Shown: one piece after another, positions 5,703 through 12,186 of the stretch
Numbering within the stretch: position 1 is the stretch's first letter
How the letters are laid out: each line of letters begins with the position of its first letter
Source of the DNA: Planctomycetia bacterium
GTDB lineage: Bacteria > Planctomycetota > Planctomycetia > Pirellulales > JALHLM01
Length of the DNA: 40,085 bases
Reading direction: 5' to 3'
NCBI GenBank assembly: GCA_034440135.1
Contig: JAWXBP010000387.1
Span: forward strand, 1-40,085
Notes under the pieces: model-generated
Databases searched by the model: none
What the model saw: only the letters and a program-made list of their open reading frames with translations
Told to the model about the DNA's origin: nothing
Program-made: the position numbers and the translations under genes

Positions 5703-6011
5703 ATGGCGACGATCGCTGACAACGAAGATCCCGTGGTGCGCAGTTCACGGCGCGAGGCGTTGTGGATCTTTCTGATTTGGTGCGTGACGCTCATCTACTG
5801 CGTCACTTACTGCGCTGCCTATGGATATGGTCGTTCGGCCGAGGAATTGACCTTTGTGCTCGGCTTTCCGAGTTGGGTCTTCTGGGGCGTGATTGTGCCT
5901 TGGGGCGTCTGCACGGTGTTGTCGGCGGCGTTCACCTGGTTCGTGATCTCCGACGACCCCTTGGGGGCGGAAATCGAATACCCTGACGAGCCGGAGCGCG
6001 ACCATGCCTGA
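5703..6011 (+). CDS. YhdT-like (DUF997-type) small membrane protein
   Basis: A 102-residue protein from ATG 5703; the longer frame to 5583 runs through the repeat region and is not favoured. Two hydrophobic segments are visible: about residues 18-37 (ALWIFLIWCVTLIYCVTYC) and 56-79 (FPSWVFWGVIVPWGVCTVLS), followed by an acidic tail (EIEYPDEPE). In enterobacteria a DUF997 protein (YhdT) is encoded just ahead of the sodium:pantothenate symporter gene panF. The same arrangement is seen here, with an 8-base overlap between this stop codon and the symporter's ATG 6004. That coupling suggests a subunit or assembly partner of the symporter. No ribosome-binding site is obvious. Confidence 0.75.
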   Translation: MATIADNEDPVVRSSRREALWIFLIWCVTLIYCVTYCAAYGYGRSAEELTFVLGFPSWVFWGVIVPWGVCTVLSAAFTWFVISDDPLGAEIEYPDEPERDHA

Positions 6012-7659
6012 CGCCGTGCCGGAAGCCGGTTGGGGATTGCCCACGGTCCTGGTCATCGTGATCGTGGCCAGCGTCTATTTGGGCACGCTCGCGCAGCGGG
6101 CCATGGCCAAAAGCGGCTTCTTGAAGGGCTTCTTTCTCGGCAACCGCGGACTCGGCGTTTGGGCGATGGCCCTCACTGCCACAGTGCAAAGCGGCGGCAC
6201 CTTCATGGGCGTACCGTCGTACATCTACACCTACGGTTGGATCGTCGCCCTCTGGATCGGCAGCTACATGCTGGTCCCGCTCACCGGCTTCGGCATCTTG
6301 GGGAAACGCATCGCCCAACTCTCGCGCCGCACCGGCGCGGTGACCGTGCCGGAACTGTTTCGTCGCCGCTTCGATAGCCCAGCGCTCGGCATCGTGGCAT
6401 CGACGTTCATTTTGATATTTCTGTCGTTCCTGTTCATCGCGCAATTCAAAGCCGGCGCGATTGTGATGAAGATCGCCATCCCCAATTCCGGCGCGTTGGC
6501 GCTCGCGGAAGAGCTGCCGGCGGCGTCCGACGTTGCCTTACTAAGTTTATGGGACAGTCTCGACAAGAAGTACCTGTTCGGGCTCGTGATCTTTGCCTGC
6601 ACCGTCGTCGGCTACACGCTGATCGGCGGGTTCCTGGCCTCCGTCTGGACTGACTTGTTTCAGAGCGTACTGATGTGGTTCGGTGTGCTGATTCTGCTGG
6701 GACTGACGCTCTACCACGTCGGCGGACTGGAGAACGCGACGCGCACGGCGATTGAAAACACGGGGCCCGGCTATGCTTACGGACCAGGCTACGGCGCTGT
6801 GAACCCGGAAACCGGCCAAGCCCGAGAGTTCTTGCCCGTGAGCCTGGCCGTTTCGATGTTCGTGATCTGGATCTTCGGCGGCGTGGCGACGCCGGCCGGG
6901 CTCGTCCGCTTGATGGCCAGCAAGGACACGGCCACGCTACGGCGCAGCGTGCTCGTGCTGAGCCTTTACAACTGCTGCATCTACATTCCGCTGATCGTGA
7001 TCTGTATCGCCGCGCGGGGCATCATGCCGGACCTGGATAAGAGCGACGAAGTGATCCCGCGGATGGCGCTCATGATGACGCAGGATTTCGCCGGCGGCTC
7101 GCTCGTGGCGGGATTGATTCTGGCCGCGCCGTTCGGAGCGATCATGGCCACGGTCAGCACCTTCTTGATCGTCATCTCGTCCGGCATCGTCCATGACATC
7201 TATCAGCAGGTGTTTCATCCCCACGCGGACGAAAAACACCTGAAGCGCCTCACGCGAATCGTAATGATCGTCGTCGGCATGATCGCCGTCTTGGCGAACA
7301 TCAAGCCCATCGACTATCTGCAGGCCTTGATCGTCTTTTGCACCTCCGGCGCGGCCGCCACCTTCCTGGCCCCGGCGCTGCTGGCCGCTTACTGGCGTCG
7401 TGCGAACGCCGCCGGAGCGATCGCCGCGATGGTCACCGGCGCCAGCGTCGTGCTCGTACTATTTCTCGTCGGCCAGTTCACGCCCGACCCGAACTTCGGC
7501 CCGACCAGCATGCGGCCGTATTATCTGTTCGGACTCGATCCCGTGGTCTGGGGCATTCCTGGTTCGCTGCTCGCAGGCGTCGCAGTAAGCCTGTTCACGC
7601 CGCCCCCGTCGCCGGAACTCGTGGCGAGGATGTTCGATCGACTGCCGGCGACTAAATGA
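6004..7659 (+). CDS. Sodium:solute symporter (SSS family, PanF-like)
   Basis: A 551-residue integral membrane protein with about 13 hydrophobic segments, the usual length for the SSS family. Family-typical features include an early GFFLGNRGLG-like segment (residues 39-50), TATVQSGGTFMGVPSYIYTYGW near 60-82, and GYTLIGGFLASVWTDLFQ near 200-218, which matches the SSS signature region. The substrate cannot be read from the sequence; the DUF997-like partner just upstream suggests a pantothenate-type or organic-acid symporter driven by sodium. The start ATG 6004 overlaps the stop of the preceding gene, so the two are translationally coupled. The family call is firm and the substrate call is inference. 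Confidence 0.85.
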   Translation: MPDAVPEAGWGLPTVLVIVIVASVYLGTLAQRAMAKSGFLKGFFLGNRGLGVWAMALTATVQSGGTFMGVPSYIYTYGWIVALWIGSYMLVPLTGFGILGKRIAQLSRRTGAVTVPELFRRRFDSPALGIVASTFILIFLSFLFIAQFKAGAIVMKIAIPNSGALALAEELPAASDVALLSLWDSLDKKYLFGLVIFACTVVGYTLIGGFLASVWTDLFQSVLMWFGVLILLGLTLYHVGGLENATRTAIENTGPGYAYGPGYGAVNPETGQAREFLPVSLAVSMFVIWIFGGVATPAGLVRLMASKDTATLRRSVLVLSLYNCCIYIPLIVICIAARGIMPDLDKSDEVIPRMALMMTQDFAGGSLVAGLILAAPFGAIMATVSTFLIVISSGIVHDIYQQVFHPHADEKHLKRLTRIVMIVVGMIAVLANIKPIDYLQALIVFCTSGAAATFLAPALLAAYWRRANAAGAIAAMVTGASVVLVLFLVGQFTPDPNFGPTSMRPYYLFGLDPVVWGIPGSLLAGVAVSLFTPPPSPELVARMFDRLPATK

Positions 7660-7752
7660 CGAATGACAAAGCTCGATTGTCGAATGAGTGAAACACAACG
7701 CCTTCTTTCATTCGACTTTCAGTCATTCGGATTTAGAAATTCGTCATTCCAT
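7656..7752. repeat. Inverted-repeat element rich in AATGACGAAT / ATTCGTCATT
   Basis: Immediately after the symporter gene the sequence carries AAATGACGAATGAC and, about 80 bases on, AAATTCGTCATTCC, which are near reverse complements. Between them are further CGAATGA/TCATTCG pairs. This looks like a palindromic dispersed element and not a gene. From memory similar elements are widespread in planctomycete intergenic DNA; that is not verified here. Confidence 0.45.
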
Positions 7753-7784
7753 CTCCGCCGCACAAACGGCCTTGCTACAAAAAC

Positions 7785-7820
7785 AAAAAAGCCCGCCCTG
7801 GTTTTCACCAGGGCGGGCTT
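7785..7820 (-). terminator. Strong rho-independent terminator of the cysteine-rich protein gene
   Basis: A perfect 12-bp stem pairs GCCCGCCCTGGT (7791-7802) with 7807-7818 around a 4-base loop. On the minus strand the stem is followed by a run of T (the plus strand reads AAAACAAAAAA at 7780-7790). This is a canonical intrinsic terminator 29 bases past the stop codon of the gene at 7849-8487. Confidence 0.9.
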
Positions 7821-7848
7821 CAATCAGCAGTCAGACCTCACGCAGCCG

Positions 7849-8487
7849 TTAGTTGCGATAGGAGACCTGGCGATGGGCACGGGTCGACTTGCGAACGCGG
7901 GCCGAGCTGTCCTGCATCGGAGCAGCGGGCACCGGGGCTTCTTCGCTGCTCGATTCGACCGCGGCGCCGCCGCCGCCGCACGAGCTGCATCCGCCGGTCG
8001 AGCAGCAGCTCGAGCAGCTATTGCAACTCTTGTGGCTGAACAAGCCTAAGAGGTCCAGGCCGCAGCACTTCTTTTTCTTGCAGCAGGAATCGCCGCAAGG
8101 ATCGCAGCACGCGGTCTCGGCTTCGCAGCTCGGTTCGCAGGCGTCCGCACACGGATCACTGCAAGGATCGCAGCACGCCGAGGCGCACGGATCGCAGCAG
8201 GAATCACTGCAGCACGGATCACAGCAGCCGCAATCAAACAAGCCGTGCAAGCCCTCGAACAACTCGCGGATCGGGTGGCAGCACTTCTTGCCGCAAGGAT
8301 CGCAGCACGCGTCGCCGCACGGATCGCATTCCGTCGTGGCTTCGCAGGACGGTTCGCAGGCGTCAGCACAGGAGCTGCACCCGCCCTTGTGGTTGCTGAG
8401 CATCCGATCGAGCAACTCGAAGCCGTAGCTCTGGCTACAAACTCCCAAGCTGACGACCAGAGCTCCAACTAGGCTAGTCCATTTCAT
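7849..8487 (-). CDS. Exported protein extremely rich in cysteine, with CDPC repeats
   Basis: A 212-residue protein from ATG 8487, which has an AAGGAGA site nine bases upstream; the open frame extends to 8736 but has no start support. Residues 1-22 form a Sec signal peptide (MKWTSLVGALVVSLGVCSQS). I count about 39 cysteines, nearly all in residues 36-170. They come in repeating units such as CDPCGDACCDPC, CCDPCSDPCADACEPSCE and KKKKCC. Two long units (around CADACEPSCEA) are near copies, so internal duplication is likely. Near residue 75 is a cysteine-poor segment (HPIRELFEGLHGLF). The tail (about 170-212) is Ser/Ala/Glu-rich and then basic. Cys pairs of this density suggest metal binding or a disulfide-crosslinked envelope component; no named family is claimed. 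It is a single-gene unit ending at a strong terminator. Confidence 0.85.
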   Translation of the reverse strand: MKWTSLVGALVVSLGVCSQSYGFELLDRMLSNHKGGCSSCADACEPSCEATTECDPCGDACCDPCGKKCCHPIRELFEGLHGLFDCGCCDPCCSDSCCDPCASACCDPCSDPCADACEPSCEAETACCDPCGDSCCKKKKCCGLDLLGLFSHKSCNSCSSCCSTGGCSSCGGGGAAVESSSEEAPVPAAPMQDSSARVRKSTRAHRQVSYRN

Positions 8488-9236
8488 CGAACATCGTCTC
8501 CTTCTGCTGTGAACCAGGAGTGCGCGCATTCCCGACGGCCAACCTCTCGCGGACACCGTTCGTACCCTTGGGCGTGAGGAGTGACTCCGGCCGGACTGGG
8601 CGTTTCGTGCGGGACGAAGGCCGAGGCTGATCGGGGTGTCGGCGGGCGTAGGTCGCGGGCGAGGGTCTCGATCCCCCGGTTCACAAGGTGTATTCCACCA
8701 GTGCCGTCGAGCCATTCCTTGACTCGAAAAGTCCAACGGCTGGGTCTGGCGCTCCCTCGCATGCCTTGTACAAGAGGCATGCTTTCCTCGTTAAGGGACA
8801 CTGACGGTATCGTCCGCCGAATCGCAGGGCCTTGAGCGGTCGGAAGTATTTTTCGCACAAGGATTTACCGCTCCTTGTGGGCAAACCTTTCCGCGCGACG
8901 AAGCTGGTGAAACCCTGCCGATTATGCATCCCCGACGCGACCGATTTTGCCGAACTTGCCGACGGAAAAGTCCCGCGCAAACGCGCGGCTCCCCAATCCG
9001 TCAGAGTCAACATCTTCAAAGGATGTCGCCACCGCACACTAACCCGAAGCGCCGGCGAGGGGGAGAGGACGTCGACGCAGCGGGCACAGCGCACTGAGGA
9101 TCGACGAATCGCATGGGATGTGCTCTTTGCGCGTCATGGCTCTCGGTCACCAGCGTCCCCTCCCCCTCGCTGGCGCTTCGGGTTAGTGTGTTGGTCGCTG
9201 CCTCAATACCCTACTCGCCAACGACTGGCAAACTCC
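8488..9236. other. Long intergenic region, partly occupied by an inverted-repeat element
   Basis: About 750 bases separate the cysteine-rich gene (minus) from the RraA-like gene (plus). The short open frames here give low-complexity basic translations and none looks conserved. The only strong structure is the 37-bp inverted repeat at 9035-9190, described separately. The rest should include promoters for both flanking genes, but I could not fix their boxes. Confidence 0.5.
9035..9190. repeat. Long inverted repeat (37-bp arms, 82-base spacer), MITE-like
   Basis: The left arm 9035-9071 begins CACACTAACCCGAAGCGCC; the right arm 9154-9190 ends GGCGCTTCGGGTTAGTGTG. The arms are reverse complements with two mismatches. 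The spacer (9072-9153) shows no coding potential. The element ends 46 bases before the RraA-like start codon. Its form is that of a non-autonomous mobile or repeat element; I recall the CGCTTCGGGTTAGTGTG core as recurrent in planctomycete genomes, unverified. Confidence 0.7.
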
Positions 9237-10253: not shown

Positions 10254-11321
10254 ATGTCAAACGGTGGAATCGGACTAGGCGAAATAAAATCCGCTTTGGA
10301 AAACGCCGGGGAACCTTGGCAGGCTGGCATGACCAGCATCGCCCGCTTGGCTCCGGAGGAACGCCGGCGCCGGCTGGGAGTTCCTGGTGGAGCTAAGGCG
10401 GCGAAAGCCGCTATGCCGACCGCAGGCACAGTGCGGGCTCCGTCGGCTTACGACCTGCGCAATGTAGGCGGCAAGAACTTTGTGACGCCGATCAAGGATC
10501 AAGGCTCATGCGGTTCCTGCGTCTCGTTTGGCGTCGTGGCGACCGTCGAAAGTACGTTGATGGTGCAGCAGGGCTCCACCGATCCGGTGGACCTCAGCGA
10601 AGCCCACTTGTTTTTCTGCCATGCCCGGGACCGCGGCTATAACTGCAATACCGGCTGGTGGCCGAACGAGGCCCTAGACGATTTTCGCGACAAAGGCGTC
10701 GTCGACGATGCCTGCTATCCCTACAACCTCGCCAATACGGATTGCAGCGGACTATGTGACGATTGGCAGAATCGCCTCACCCGGATAGCCGGCTATCAGG
10801 ACCTGACGAACAAGGCGGACGCAATCAAGGATTGGGTATCCACCCGTGGGGCCGTAGCCGCCTGTTTTGAGGTGTATGAAGACTTCTTCTATTACCAGAG
10901 CGGAGTCTACCGGCACGTCACCGGCGGCTTGATGGGCGGGCACTGCGTGACGATCGTCGGGTATGACGACGCGCAGTCCTGTTGGATCTGCAAGAACAGT
11001 TGGACCACCGGCTGGGGCGAGCAGGGCTTTTTCCGCATTGGTTATGGCGAATGCGGGATTGAGACCTGGCTGAACCACGGCGCCGAGGGCGTCCAAGTCA
11101 GCGGTTGGATCAACTCCACGCGCGTCCAAGGCCTATGGACGATCAACCAGGAGTGCAACGCCTGGGCCTATCTGGCGAACAAAGGTTGGTGCAAAGTCTC
11201 GCCCGACAATTTGCAGATTTTCTCGACCATGTTAGCGCAGCTGGCGTCGGCGAAAACCGGCGGCCGCGTCGTCAACGTGTATACGGATCGGGACGTGATT
11301 AAGCAGGTCTATGTGTTTTGA
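10254..11321 (+). CDS. Papain-family (C1A) cysteine peptidase with a C-terminal accessory domain
   Basis: A 355-residue protein from ATG 10254 with a strong AAGGAG site (10241-10246). There is no signal peptide. Residues 8-45 form a short pro-region-like helix ending ERRRRLGVPGG. The catalytic domain runs about 60-285: oxyanion Gln83 and nucleophile Cys89 in QGSCGSCVSF, catalytic His230 in GGHCVTIVGYDD, and Asn248 in CKNSWTTGWGEQGFF. The Trp that usually follows the nucleophile is Val90 here. Extra Cys pairs (122, 131, 154, 164, 168) suggest disulfides or metal binding, odd for a protein without an export signal. Residues 290-355 form a separate domain (QGLWTINQECNAWAYL ... KQVYVF) that recurs in the next gene product. 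A chagasin-type inhibitor is encoded two genes on, as expected for a regulated papain-like enzyme. Peptidase call firm; substrate unknown. Confidence 0.92.
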   Translation: MSNGGIGLGEIKSALENAGEPWQAGMTSIARLAPEERRRRLGVPGGAKAAKAAMPTAGTVRAPSAYDLRNVGGKNFVTPIKDQGSCGSCVSFGVVATVESTLMVQQGSTDPVDLSEAHLFFCHARDRGYNCNTGWWPNEALDDFRDKGVVDDACYPYNLANTDCSGLCDDWQNRLTRIAGYQDLTNKADAIKDWVSTRGAVAACFEVYEDFFYYQSGVYRHVTGGLMGGHCVTIVGYDDAQSCWICKNSWTTGWGEQGFFRIGYGECGIETWLNHGAEGVQVSGWINSTRVQGLWTINQECNAWAYLANKGWCKVSPDNLQIFSTMLAQLASAKTGGRVVNVYTDRDVIKQVYVF

Positions 11322-11369
11322 TCGCTACGTTTCTGCTTGCTAATTCACTTAATGATGAAGGAGAACGAT

Positions 11370-11798
11370 ATGAGTCAAGCTACGCCTCAAGCCTCTCCGG
11401 CGAATTCGCCTTCGGCGGGGACTTCGAATTCTGGGCCCGCAGCGCCGGCGAAAACCGCGGCCGGATGCGGTTGCTCGGGTCAGACGGCAAGCGCCATGAT
11501 GGCGGGACCGGCAGGACCTGCGTCAGGCGCCGCGCCATCGATGCGCCCCGCCGGCGTCGGCGGCGCGATCGGCGGCCAATGGCACAACGCTAAGCGCATT
11601 ACCGGTACTTGGTGCATCAACGAAGTCCGTAACGCCTGGGTCTACGTCGACGGACTATCCTGGCGAAAGCTAGCCAACGGCTTGGATAGCGCAACGATCG
11701 CGCTGTCTTTGCTCGGCGCCAGCGCACTAGCCACGGGTACCGCGACGGATTTGCGAGAAGAAGCGGACGGTATGATCCACGAAATGTACGTGTGGTAG
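11370..11798 (+). CDS. Small protein sharing the peptidase's C-terminal domain
   Basis: A 142-residue protein from ATG 11370, preceded at six bases by AAGGAG (11358-11363); the context AAGGAGAAC is identical to that of the peptidase gene 48 bases upstream. Residues 1-68 are low-complexity Ala/Pro/Gly/Ser with a CGCSG motif (33-37) and end in a GGAIGG segment (64-69). Residues 75-142 align by eye with residues 290-355 of the peptidase: both have Arg, then GxW, IN, NAW, a Tyr strand, a Trp-x-Lys, a helical stretch and a C-terminal YVF or YVW. I do not recognise this domain. No signal peptide is visible. The layout suggests a precursor or partner of the peptidase, perhaps cleaved near the Gly-Gly site. 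That is inference. Confidence 0.8.
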   Translation: MSQATPQASPANSPSAGTSNSGPAAPAKTAAGCGCSGQTASAMMAGPAGPASGAAPSMRPAGVGGAIGGQWHNAKRITGTWCINEVRNAWVYVDGLSWRKLANGLDSATIALSLLGASALATGTATDLREEADGMIHEMYVW

Positions 11799-11827: not shown

Positions 11828-11872
11828 CCGACGGCGGCGCGCCTCGCCGCCGTCGGTCGATGACTTTTTTTC
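11828..11872 (+). terminator. GC-rich hairpin with downstream T-run between the small protein and inhibitor genes
   Basis: CCGACGGCGGCG (11828-11839) pairs perfectly with 11845-11856 around a 5-base loop. A T-run (11864-11872) follows after eight bases. It may act as a terminator or attenuator ahead of the chagasin-like gene. The gap between stem and T-run is longer than usual, so efficiency is uncertain. Confidence 0.55.
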
Positions 11873-11886
11873 AAAGGCACTGAAAC

Positions 11887-12186
11887 ATGCCACTGACCGA
11901 GAGTGACGATGGCCGCACGCTGACCGTGGACGCCAACGCGGAATTGTCCGTCAAACTAGGCGAGAACCCCACGACGGGCTATCGATGGTCCGTTGACCAA
12001 TTGACGGCCGTCGTCTTGGTATCCGATCGCTTTGAACCCGGCGACGCCATCGGCGCGGCGGGACATCATTGGTTTGTGTTTCGCGCCGGCGCGCCAGGTT
12101 CCGGCGGCGTGAAACTCAAGTTGAGTCGTCCTTGGCAAGGCGACCCACCCTTGCGCGCGTTTGCCGTCACGCTGATCGTTCAATAG
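11887..12186 (+). CDS. Chagasin-family (I42) inhibitor of papain-type cysteine peptidases
   Basis: A 99-residue protein from ATG 11887 with an AAAGG site upstream. The inhibitory loops of the chagasin family are visible: NPTTGY at residues 27-32, a Gly-containing segment (GAAGHHWFVFRA, about 56-67), and RPW at 81-83. The length fits a chagasin without a signal peptide (about 100-110 residues). In the family these three loops block the active-site cleft of C1 peptidases. The nearby C1 peptidase without a signal peptide is the obvious target in the same compartment. It follows a hairpin and so may be made at a lower or separately set level. Known: the family inhibits papain-like enzymes. Inferred: the pairing with this peptidase. 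Confidence 0.9.
   Translation: MPLTESDDGRTLTVDANAELSVKLGENPTTGYRWSVDQLTAVVLVSDRFEPGDAIGAAGHHWFVFRAGAPGSGGVKLKLSRPWQGDPPLRAFAVTLIVQ

What the first reader, a model, noticed from the sequence alone, without database searches (positions are those of the whole stretch)
11121..11798. Unnamed C-terminal domain shared by the peptidase and its neighbour
Peptidase residues 290-355 and small-protein residues 75-142 share an Arg-h-x-G-x-W-x-I-N...N-A-W-h-Y pattern, a Trp-x-Lys and a terminal Tyr-Val-aromatic end. Such a repeated domain on enzyme and partner is typical of recruitment, targeting or self-recognition modules. It matches no family I recognise.
Basis: partly seen in the sequence, partly recalled or inferred. 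Interest (0 to 1): 0.75.

Follow-up and report, generated by a model that had tools for sequence, protein, structure and literature searches.

The report
Shared tail pairs protease and partner
A papain-type protease and the small protein encoded next to it end in related copies of an uncatalogued domain; together with a protease-inhibitor gene they form a three-gene cassette found, rarely but recognisably, in at least a dozen phyla of bacteria and archaea, which suggests that enzyme and partner work as one complex.

Summary
Peptidase residues 285-355 and small-protein residues 71-142 are homologous: alignment score 98 against a shuffle maximum of 69, and profile-profile E 3.9e-30 with a reversed control at 4.6% probability. 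No Pfam, NCBIfam or PDB sequence family matches credibly. AlphaFold2 gives both copies the strand/helix order b-b-b-a-b-b. The small-protein copy is OB-like, nearest to AB5-toxin B subunits (Z about 10), but is not a member of that family by sequence, and neither enzyme nor partner has an evident signal peptide. The domain, here called T, is part of a conserved cassette: zymogen-like C1A peptidase with T, small protein with a disordered proline-rich tail and T, and a chagasin-type I42 inhibitor. All 49 T-peptidase loci with room downstream hold the partner next door; 48 of 51 hold I42 nearby. Sixteen genomes searched hold exactly two T each. Peptidase and partner copies form two sides of a tree and co-vary (r = 0.82). 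Most likely T is a pairing module that builds an enzyme-partner hetero-oligomer, possibly multivalent and ligand-binding, with I42 as the brake. Assembly, ligand and biological role are inferred, not shown.

The parts
10254..11321 (+). C1A (papain-family) cysteine peptidase gene, 355 aa, cathepsin-B/C-like
   Evidence: Pfam PF00112 E 5e-48 at residues 63-271; cathepsin B/C best PDB sequences; C89, H230, N248 invariant and Q83 at least 90% conserved in 48 homologues; model pLDDT 90.8, pTM 0.88
10254..10433 (+). pro-region (residues 1-60; W-x-A-G-x-T-S...L-S-x-E-E...R-L-G)
   Evidence: conserved N-terminal motif; the model aligns with procathepsin B from residue 7, Z 31.0, 2.9 A over 270 residues
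11106..11318 (+). T domain, peptidase copy (residues 285-355)
   Evidence: in-house HMM E 7e-27; strands 284-296, 303-307, 311-315, helix 320-335, strands 339-345, 348-354
11370..11798 (+). small partner gene, 142 aa (start chosen behind an AAGGAGA ribosome-binding site; the longer TTG ORF starts at 11337)
   Evidence: no Pfam match; next to the peptidase in all 49 loci with room
11370..11579 (+). disordered Pro/Ala/Ser/Gly-rich N-terminal tail of the partner (residues 1-70)
   Evidence: pLDDT mostly under 60; relatives carry a PxxxPP motif in 36 of 50 tails against about 3 expected; the window's copy has only the weaker APSMRPA
11580..11795 (+). T domain, partner copy (residues 71-142)
   Evidence: in-house HMM E 1e-26; strands 70-83, 88-93, 97-101, helix 106-122, strands 125-130, 136-141, pLDDT about 84-95; nearest PDB fold LT-IIb B subunit, Z 10.1
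11828..11871 (+). 12-bp G+C-rich hairpin followed 8 bases later by seven T, between partner and inhibitor genes; terminator- or attenuator-like
   Evidence: fold z-score -2.4; not called by the consensus scan because of the spacer
11887..12186 (+). I42 (chagasin-family) cysteine peptidase inhibitor, 99 aa
   Evidence: Pfam PF09394 E 3.4e-19; ENPTTGYRW and RPW motifs in the sequence; I42 gene near 48 of 51 T-peptidases

Best explanation
The locus encodes a regulated protease complex. The C1A peptidase is made as a zymogen with a short cathepsin-B-like pro-region (model-based). Its C-terminal OB-like T domain co-assembles with the paralogous T domain of the small partner, giving a hetero-oligomer (dimer or ring) of enzyme and partner; the partner adds extra T surfaces and, in most lineages, a flexible proline-rich arm with PxxxPP motifs that brings in a target or a regulator. 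The I42 protein encoded next is the tight-binding brake on the mature enzyme. Shown: homology of the two tails, matching predicted topology, cassette conservation, exactly two T per genome, two sister groups, intact catalytic residues. Inferred: physical pairing of the two T domains, the job of the arm, inhibition by I42. Not known: the ligand or substrate, and where the complex acts.
For: Partner gene directly downstream of all 49 T-peptidases with room, gap usually 10-70 bp, while flanking genes recur only among close relatives. Exactly two T per genome in 16 genomes plus a Deinococcus plasmid, one per protein; none in 381 other Planctomycetota or 144 genomes of a Bacteroidota family sample. 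Peptidase and partner copies separate on the tree and their distances correlate, r 0.82 against a permutation maximum of 0.24, so the two kinds look non-interchangeable and are kept together. In L075 two partner genes consist of little more than T, so T is the essential part. The nearest folds are subunits that work as oligomers, some hetero-oligomers (the heteropentamer of pertussis toxin from general knowledge). Archaeal locus L085 repeats the design with a tail (T2) not detectably related: T2 on peptidase, T2 on small partner, I42, again exactly two copies in that genome. Pro-region and I42 support tight control.
Against: No complex was modelled; only single chains could be predicted and no coordinates were available to inspect interfaces. 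Co-inheritance and correlated distances also follow from linkage alone. OB folds are common and serve many tasks. Sister peptidases without T carry lectin-type propellers and other binding modules with no paired partner, which fits a ligand-binding role without pairing equally well. The window's own partner lacks a full PxxxPP motif.
Confidence: 0.5

Rival explanations
1. T is a lectin-like or other ligand-binding module. Enzyme and partner each bind the same outside target (glycan or surface protein) through T without pairing with each other; the partner occupies or clusters the target.
For: Nearest folds are glycan-binding AB5 B subunits (LT-IIb Z 10, cholera B Z 8, Shiga B Z 7.7). Sister peptidases carry, in the same place, PLL-type repeats (DUF346, held to be PLL-like lectins, PMC7778903), MIR, DUF5648 or FG-GAP repeats. 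A lectin-like C1A protease, Cwp84, is known (cited in PMC10380794).
Against: No evident signal peptide on enzyme or partner (hydropathy). T is restricted to this pair, whereas a general ligand module would be expected on other proteins. A shared fold shows no function.
Confidence: 0.27
2. The partner is a regulator in trans: its T binds the enzyme, and its tail, with Leu at P2 and Pro-Pro following in AP(T/S)LxPP, lies in the active site as a poorly cleavable pseudo-substrate, or is the bait whose cleavage releases the enzyme.
For: Motif strongly enriched over shuffled tails, Leu most common at its third place. OB-like propeptide of pro-protein-glutaminase among the nearest folds, Z 8.7. Free-standing pro-regions at L085 and L092 suggest that trans-acting control elements occur near such peptidases.
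Against: The motif is absent from 14 of 50 tails, including the window's; L075 partners have no tail. I42 and the pro-region already supply inhibition.
Confidence: 0.13
3. Effector-immunity style cassette for conflict with other cells or phages: peptidase is the weapon, I42 the immunity protein, T and partner the delivery or aiming parts.
For: Patchy distribution over many phyla with phyla interleaved on the peptidase tree; rare within phyla; plasmid-borne in Deinococcus aetherius next to caspase genes.
Against: No defence-model match for the three proteins, no conserved defence or secretion genes alongside, no phage or viral copies found; no toxicity data.
Confidence: 0.08

Closest known systems
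Peptidase family C1A, procathepsin B-like (PF00112)
   Same: Catalytic domain, active-site residues, and a short pro-region that superposes with procathepsin B in the model
   Different: Carries the C-terminal T domain and has a dedicated T-bearing partner
Chagasin-family inhibitor I42 (PF09394)
   Same: Family match and NPTTGY/RPW motifs; chagasin-cathepsin B complexes are solved (3cbk, 3cbj)
   Different: Encoded in one cassette with a bacterial or archaeal target enzyme and partner
AB5 toxin B subunits (LT-IIb, cholera, Shiga, pertussis)
   Same: OB-like fold, Z 7.6-10 over 65-85 residues
   Different: Sequence identity about 4-18%, no family match, no evident signal peptide; one copy is fused to the enzyme. 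Analogy of fold only
C1A peptidases with C-terminal lectin-like or repeat domains (Cwp84; DUF346/PLL, MIR, DUF5648 fusions found here)
   Same: Same catalytic core, C-terminal add-on domain, often I42 nearby
   Different: No partner with a copy of the add-on domain, except L085 (T2) and possibly L097

Membership tests
Peptidase C1A | PF00112 match above curated cut-off | tested here: met
   164.5 bits against cut-off 20.7
Peptidase C1A | Gln, Cys, His, Asn of the active site | tested here: met
   C89, H230, N248 invariant, Q83 at least 90% in 48 sequences
Peptidase C1A | inhibitory pro-region | tested here: inconclusive
   no I29 Pfam match, but the model aligns with procathepsin B through the pro-region
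I42 chagasin | PF09394 match and NPTTGY motif | tested here: met
   69.4 bits against 27.2; ENPTTGYRW
I42 chagasin | inhibits C1 peptidases | not testable with these tools
   needs an enzyme assay
AB5 toxin B subunit | OB-like b-b-b-a-b-b fold | tested here: met
   Z 10.1, 2.7 A over 83 residues to LT-IIb B; topology of both copies
AB5 toxin B subunit | membership of a B-subunit sequence family | tested here: not met
   no Pfam or NCBIfam B-subunit model among 37 members; no B-subunit chain in the profile search of PDB sequences
AB5 toxin B subunit | secretion signal peptide | tested here: not met
   no strongly hydrophobic N-terminal segment in the peptidases or partners by a hydropathy scan; not a trained predictor
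AB5 toxin B subunit | pentamer formation and glycan binding | not testable with these tools
   no complex prediction or assay available
Known anti-phage defence system | PADLOC model match | tested here: not met
   none for the three cassette proteins

The most novel reading that the evidence does not exclude
T and its partner define an unrecognised kind of enzyme assembly: an AB5-like hetero-oligomer in which a papain-type peptidase carries its own B-like domain, completed by free B-like partners, with a dedicated inhibitor in the same cassette, spread horizontally between bacteria and archaea.
Probability: 0.17. Interest if true: 0.85.

Novelty: new variant of a known kind. Interest (0 to 1): 0.6.

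Why it matters
It adds an uncatalogued domain family and a conserved protease-partner-inhibitor cassette across at least a dozen phyla, annotated at best as 'C1 family peptidase', 'hypothetical protein' and 'I42 inhibitor'. It points to a natural bacterial and archaeal target enzyme for a chagasin-type inhibitor, and offers a directly testable case of an enzyme assembling with a copy of its own accessory domain.

Tried and rejected
Chance similarity: rejected. Recent duplication in this genome: rejected, since the two kinds form two sides of a tree over all lineages (modest support 81/58; the L075 peptidase copy sits at the base of the partner side). Generic scaffold-docking domain with many clients: disfavoured, exactly two T per genome. 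Phage or viral cargo: no hits, though these searches with single proteins reach close relatives only. Viral fold library: nothing below E 0.04. Wider conserved neighbourhood: none beyond close relatives. Homology of T with T2: not established (hhalign probability 2%, from three T2 sequences); two more genome searches gave no further T2 relatives. Literature searches found no paper describing the cassette; the held library is partial, so this does not prove absence.

Full report
What is there. The peptidase ORF at 10254-11321 is a C1A cysteine peptidase (PF00112 at residues 63-271). Its last 71 residues, from Trp285, match no family. The next gene, best started at 11370, encodes a 142-residue protein with no family match, whose last 72 residues, from Trp71, are the same domain. 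I call it T. The third gene, 11887-12186, is an I42 (chagasin-family) inhibitor.

Is the similarity real? Yes. The pairwise score of 98 exceeds all of 5000 shuffles in each of two tests, and profiles built from 51 peptidase tails and 50 partner tails align at 99.8% probability, E 3.9e-30, while a reversed control does not. Each single-type profile finds every member of the other type and nothing else among the ORFs of the fetched loci.

The cassette. A scan of one genome per species with the window's and a Deinococcus plasmid's peptidase returned 80 loci. With in-house profiles, T was found on 51 peptidases, counting the window and the plasmid. In the 49 loci where the contig continues, the partner gene lies directly downstream, usually 10-70 bp away; in the other two (L035, L043) the contig ends shortly after the peptidase. 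An I42 gene is nearby in 48 of 51; only L075 lacks it with room downstream, and in L048 and L069 it is on the opposite strand. Carriers include Planctomycetota, Bacteroidota, Pseudomonadota, Cyanobacteriota, Actinomycetota, Acidobacteriota, Thermodesulfobacteriota, Verrucomicrobiota, Thermomicrobiota, Deinococcota, Methanobacteriota and Bathyarchaeota, many of them metagenome bins. Flanking genes are not conserved except among close relatives. Phyla are interleaved on the peptidase tree, which suggests but does not prove transfer.

How private is T? Whole-genome searches with the T profile found exactly two copies in each of 16 carrier genomes and in the Deinococcus plasmid record, one on the peptidase and one next to it, and none in 381 other Planctomycetota genomes or in 144 genomes of a Bacteroidota family sample. 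Peptidase copies and partner copies form two sides of the tree (83% of bootstrap trees, support 81/58), and their distance matrices correlate at 0.82 (permutation maximum 0.24). The two kinds have been distinct and kept together for long. This is what a dedicated hetero-pair would show; linkage alone also gives the correlation.

Structure. The small protein is predicted disordered to about residue 69, with T at pLDDT about 84-95. The peptidase model is confident apart from its first residues and a loop around 41-60 (pLDDT 90.8, pTM 0.88). Both T copies show three strands, a helix and two strands in the same order and similar lengths. The partner T is closest to AB5 toxin B subunits (LT-IIb B Z 10.1, 2.7 A over 83 residues), then SilF, the pro-region of protein-glutaminase, CipA, cholera and Shiga B subunits (Foldseek E 3e-3 at best). 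This is an OB-like fold; sequence tests for B-subunit membership fail. The peptidase model aligns with procathepsin B including the pro-region (Z 31), so the enzyme is probably a zymogen.

The partner's tail. It is rich in Ala, Pro, Ser and Gly. A PxxxPP motif, often AP(T/S)LxPP about 20 residues before T and sometimes a second one near the start, occurs in 36 of 50 tails against about 3 in shuffles. These 50 are not independent, since close relatives are included. The window's copy has only a weaker form. In L075 two near-identical partner genes have almost no tail, so T is the part that is always kept.

Sister peptidases. Among the best 80 relatives, those without T carry other C-terminal modules: DUF346 repeats (regarded as PLL-like lectins, PMC7778903), FG-GAP, MIR, DUF5648, DUF4114. 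On the catalytic tree the T label changes about 11 times, at least 3 on well-supported branches, so the add-on is exchangeable. This favours a binding role for T. The archaeal locus L085 has a tail (T2) not detectably related to T, again on both peptidase and small partner, and again with I42. It supports the reading that an enzyme and partner with like tails is a working design.

Mechanism. I favour assembly of enzyme and partner through their T domains into a hetero-oligomer, with I42 as brake and the proline-rich tail as a recruiting or regulating arm (0.5). The main rival is that both T domains bind the same external ligand without pairing (0.27). The cellular site is open: peptidase and partner lack evident signal peptides, while I42 proteins in several loci have hydrophobic or lipoprotein-like N-termini.

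Known or new? The peptidase and inhibitor belong to known families. T, the partner family and the three-gene cassette were in no catalogue or paper I could search. I rate it a new variant of a known kind.

Noticed in passing
L085:5971-8275: Archaeal parallel cassette with another tail (T2): C1A peptidase with T2, 150-aa partner with T2 (57% identical) and EAPP-rich tail, then an I42 protein with a hydrophobic N-terminus.
   Followed up: partly
L085:7582-7779 (-) and L092:5624-5830 (-): Free-standing ORFs that consist of little but the peptidase pro-region motif; candidate trans-acting inhibitors.
   Followed up: partly
L083:7147-8871, L086:1344-2315, L005:6659-12216: DUF6345 proteins (with an HSGHGG motif that looks caspase-like) follow T2 peptidases, and two caspase-family genes follow the Deinococcus cassette.
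   Followed up: partly
window 11828-11871: Strong G+C hairpin plus T run between partner and inhibitor genes; may lower inhibitor expression relative to the enzyme.
   Followed up: partly
L075:1201-1446 and 1870-2091: Two nearly identical partner genes that are almost only T, in a Methanosarcinales bin without I42 on the contig; its peptidase T groups at the base of the partner copies.
   Followed up: partly
L027, L044, L055, L042, L047, L058, L062 (I42 genes): I42 proteins with lipoprotein-like or strongly hydrophobic N-termini beside peptidases that lack them, so inhibitor and enzyme may sit in different compartments.
   Followed up: no
L055, L056, L059, L063, L082, directly upstream of the cassette: A second, short C1A peptidase without T directly upstream.
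   Followed up: no
L097:4094-5173 and 5980-7836: In Odoribacter laneus an upstream protein shares 325 residues (38%) with the C-terminal region of a related C1A peptidase; another case of an enzyme and neighbour sharing a region.
   Followed up: no
window 7849-8736 (-): Long ORF rich in CCDPC repeats, a cysteine-rich repeat protein.
   Followed up: no
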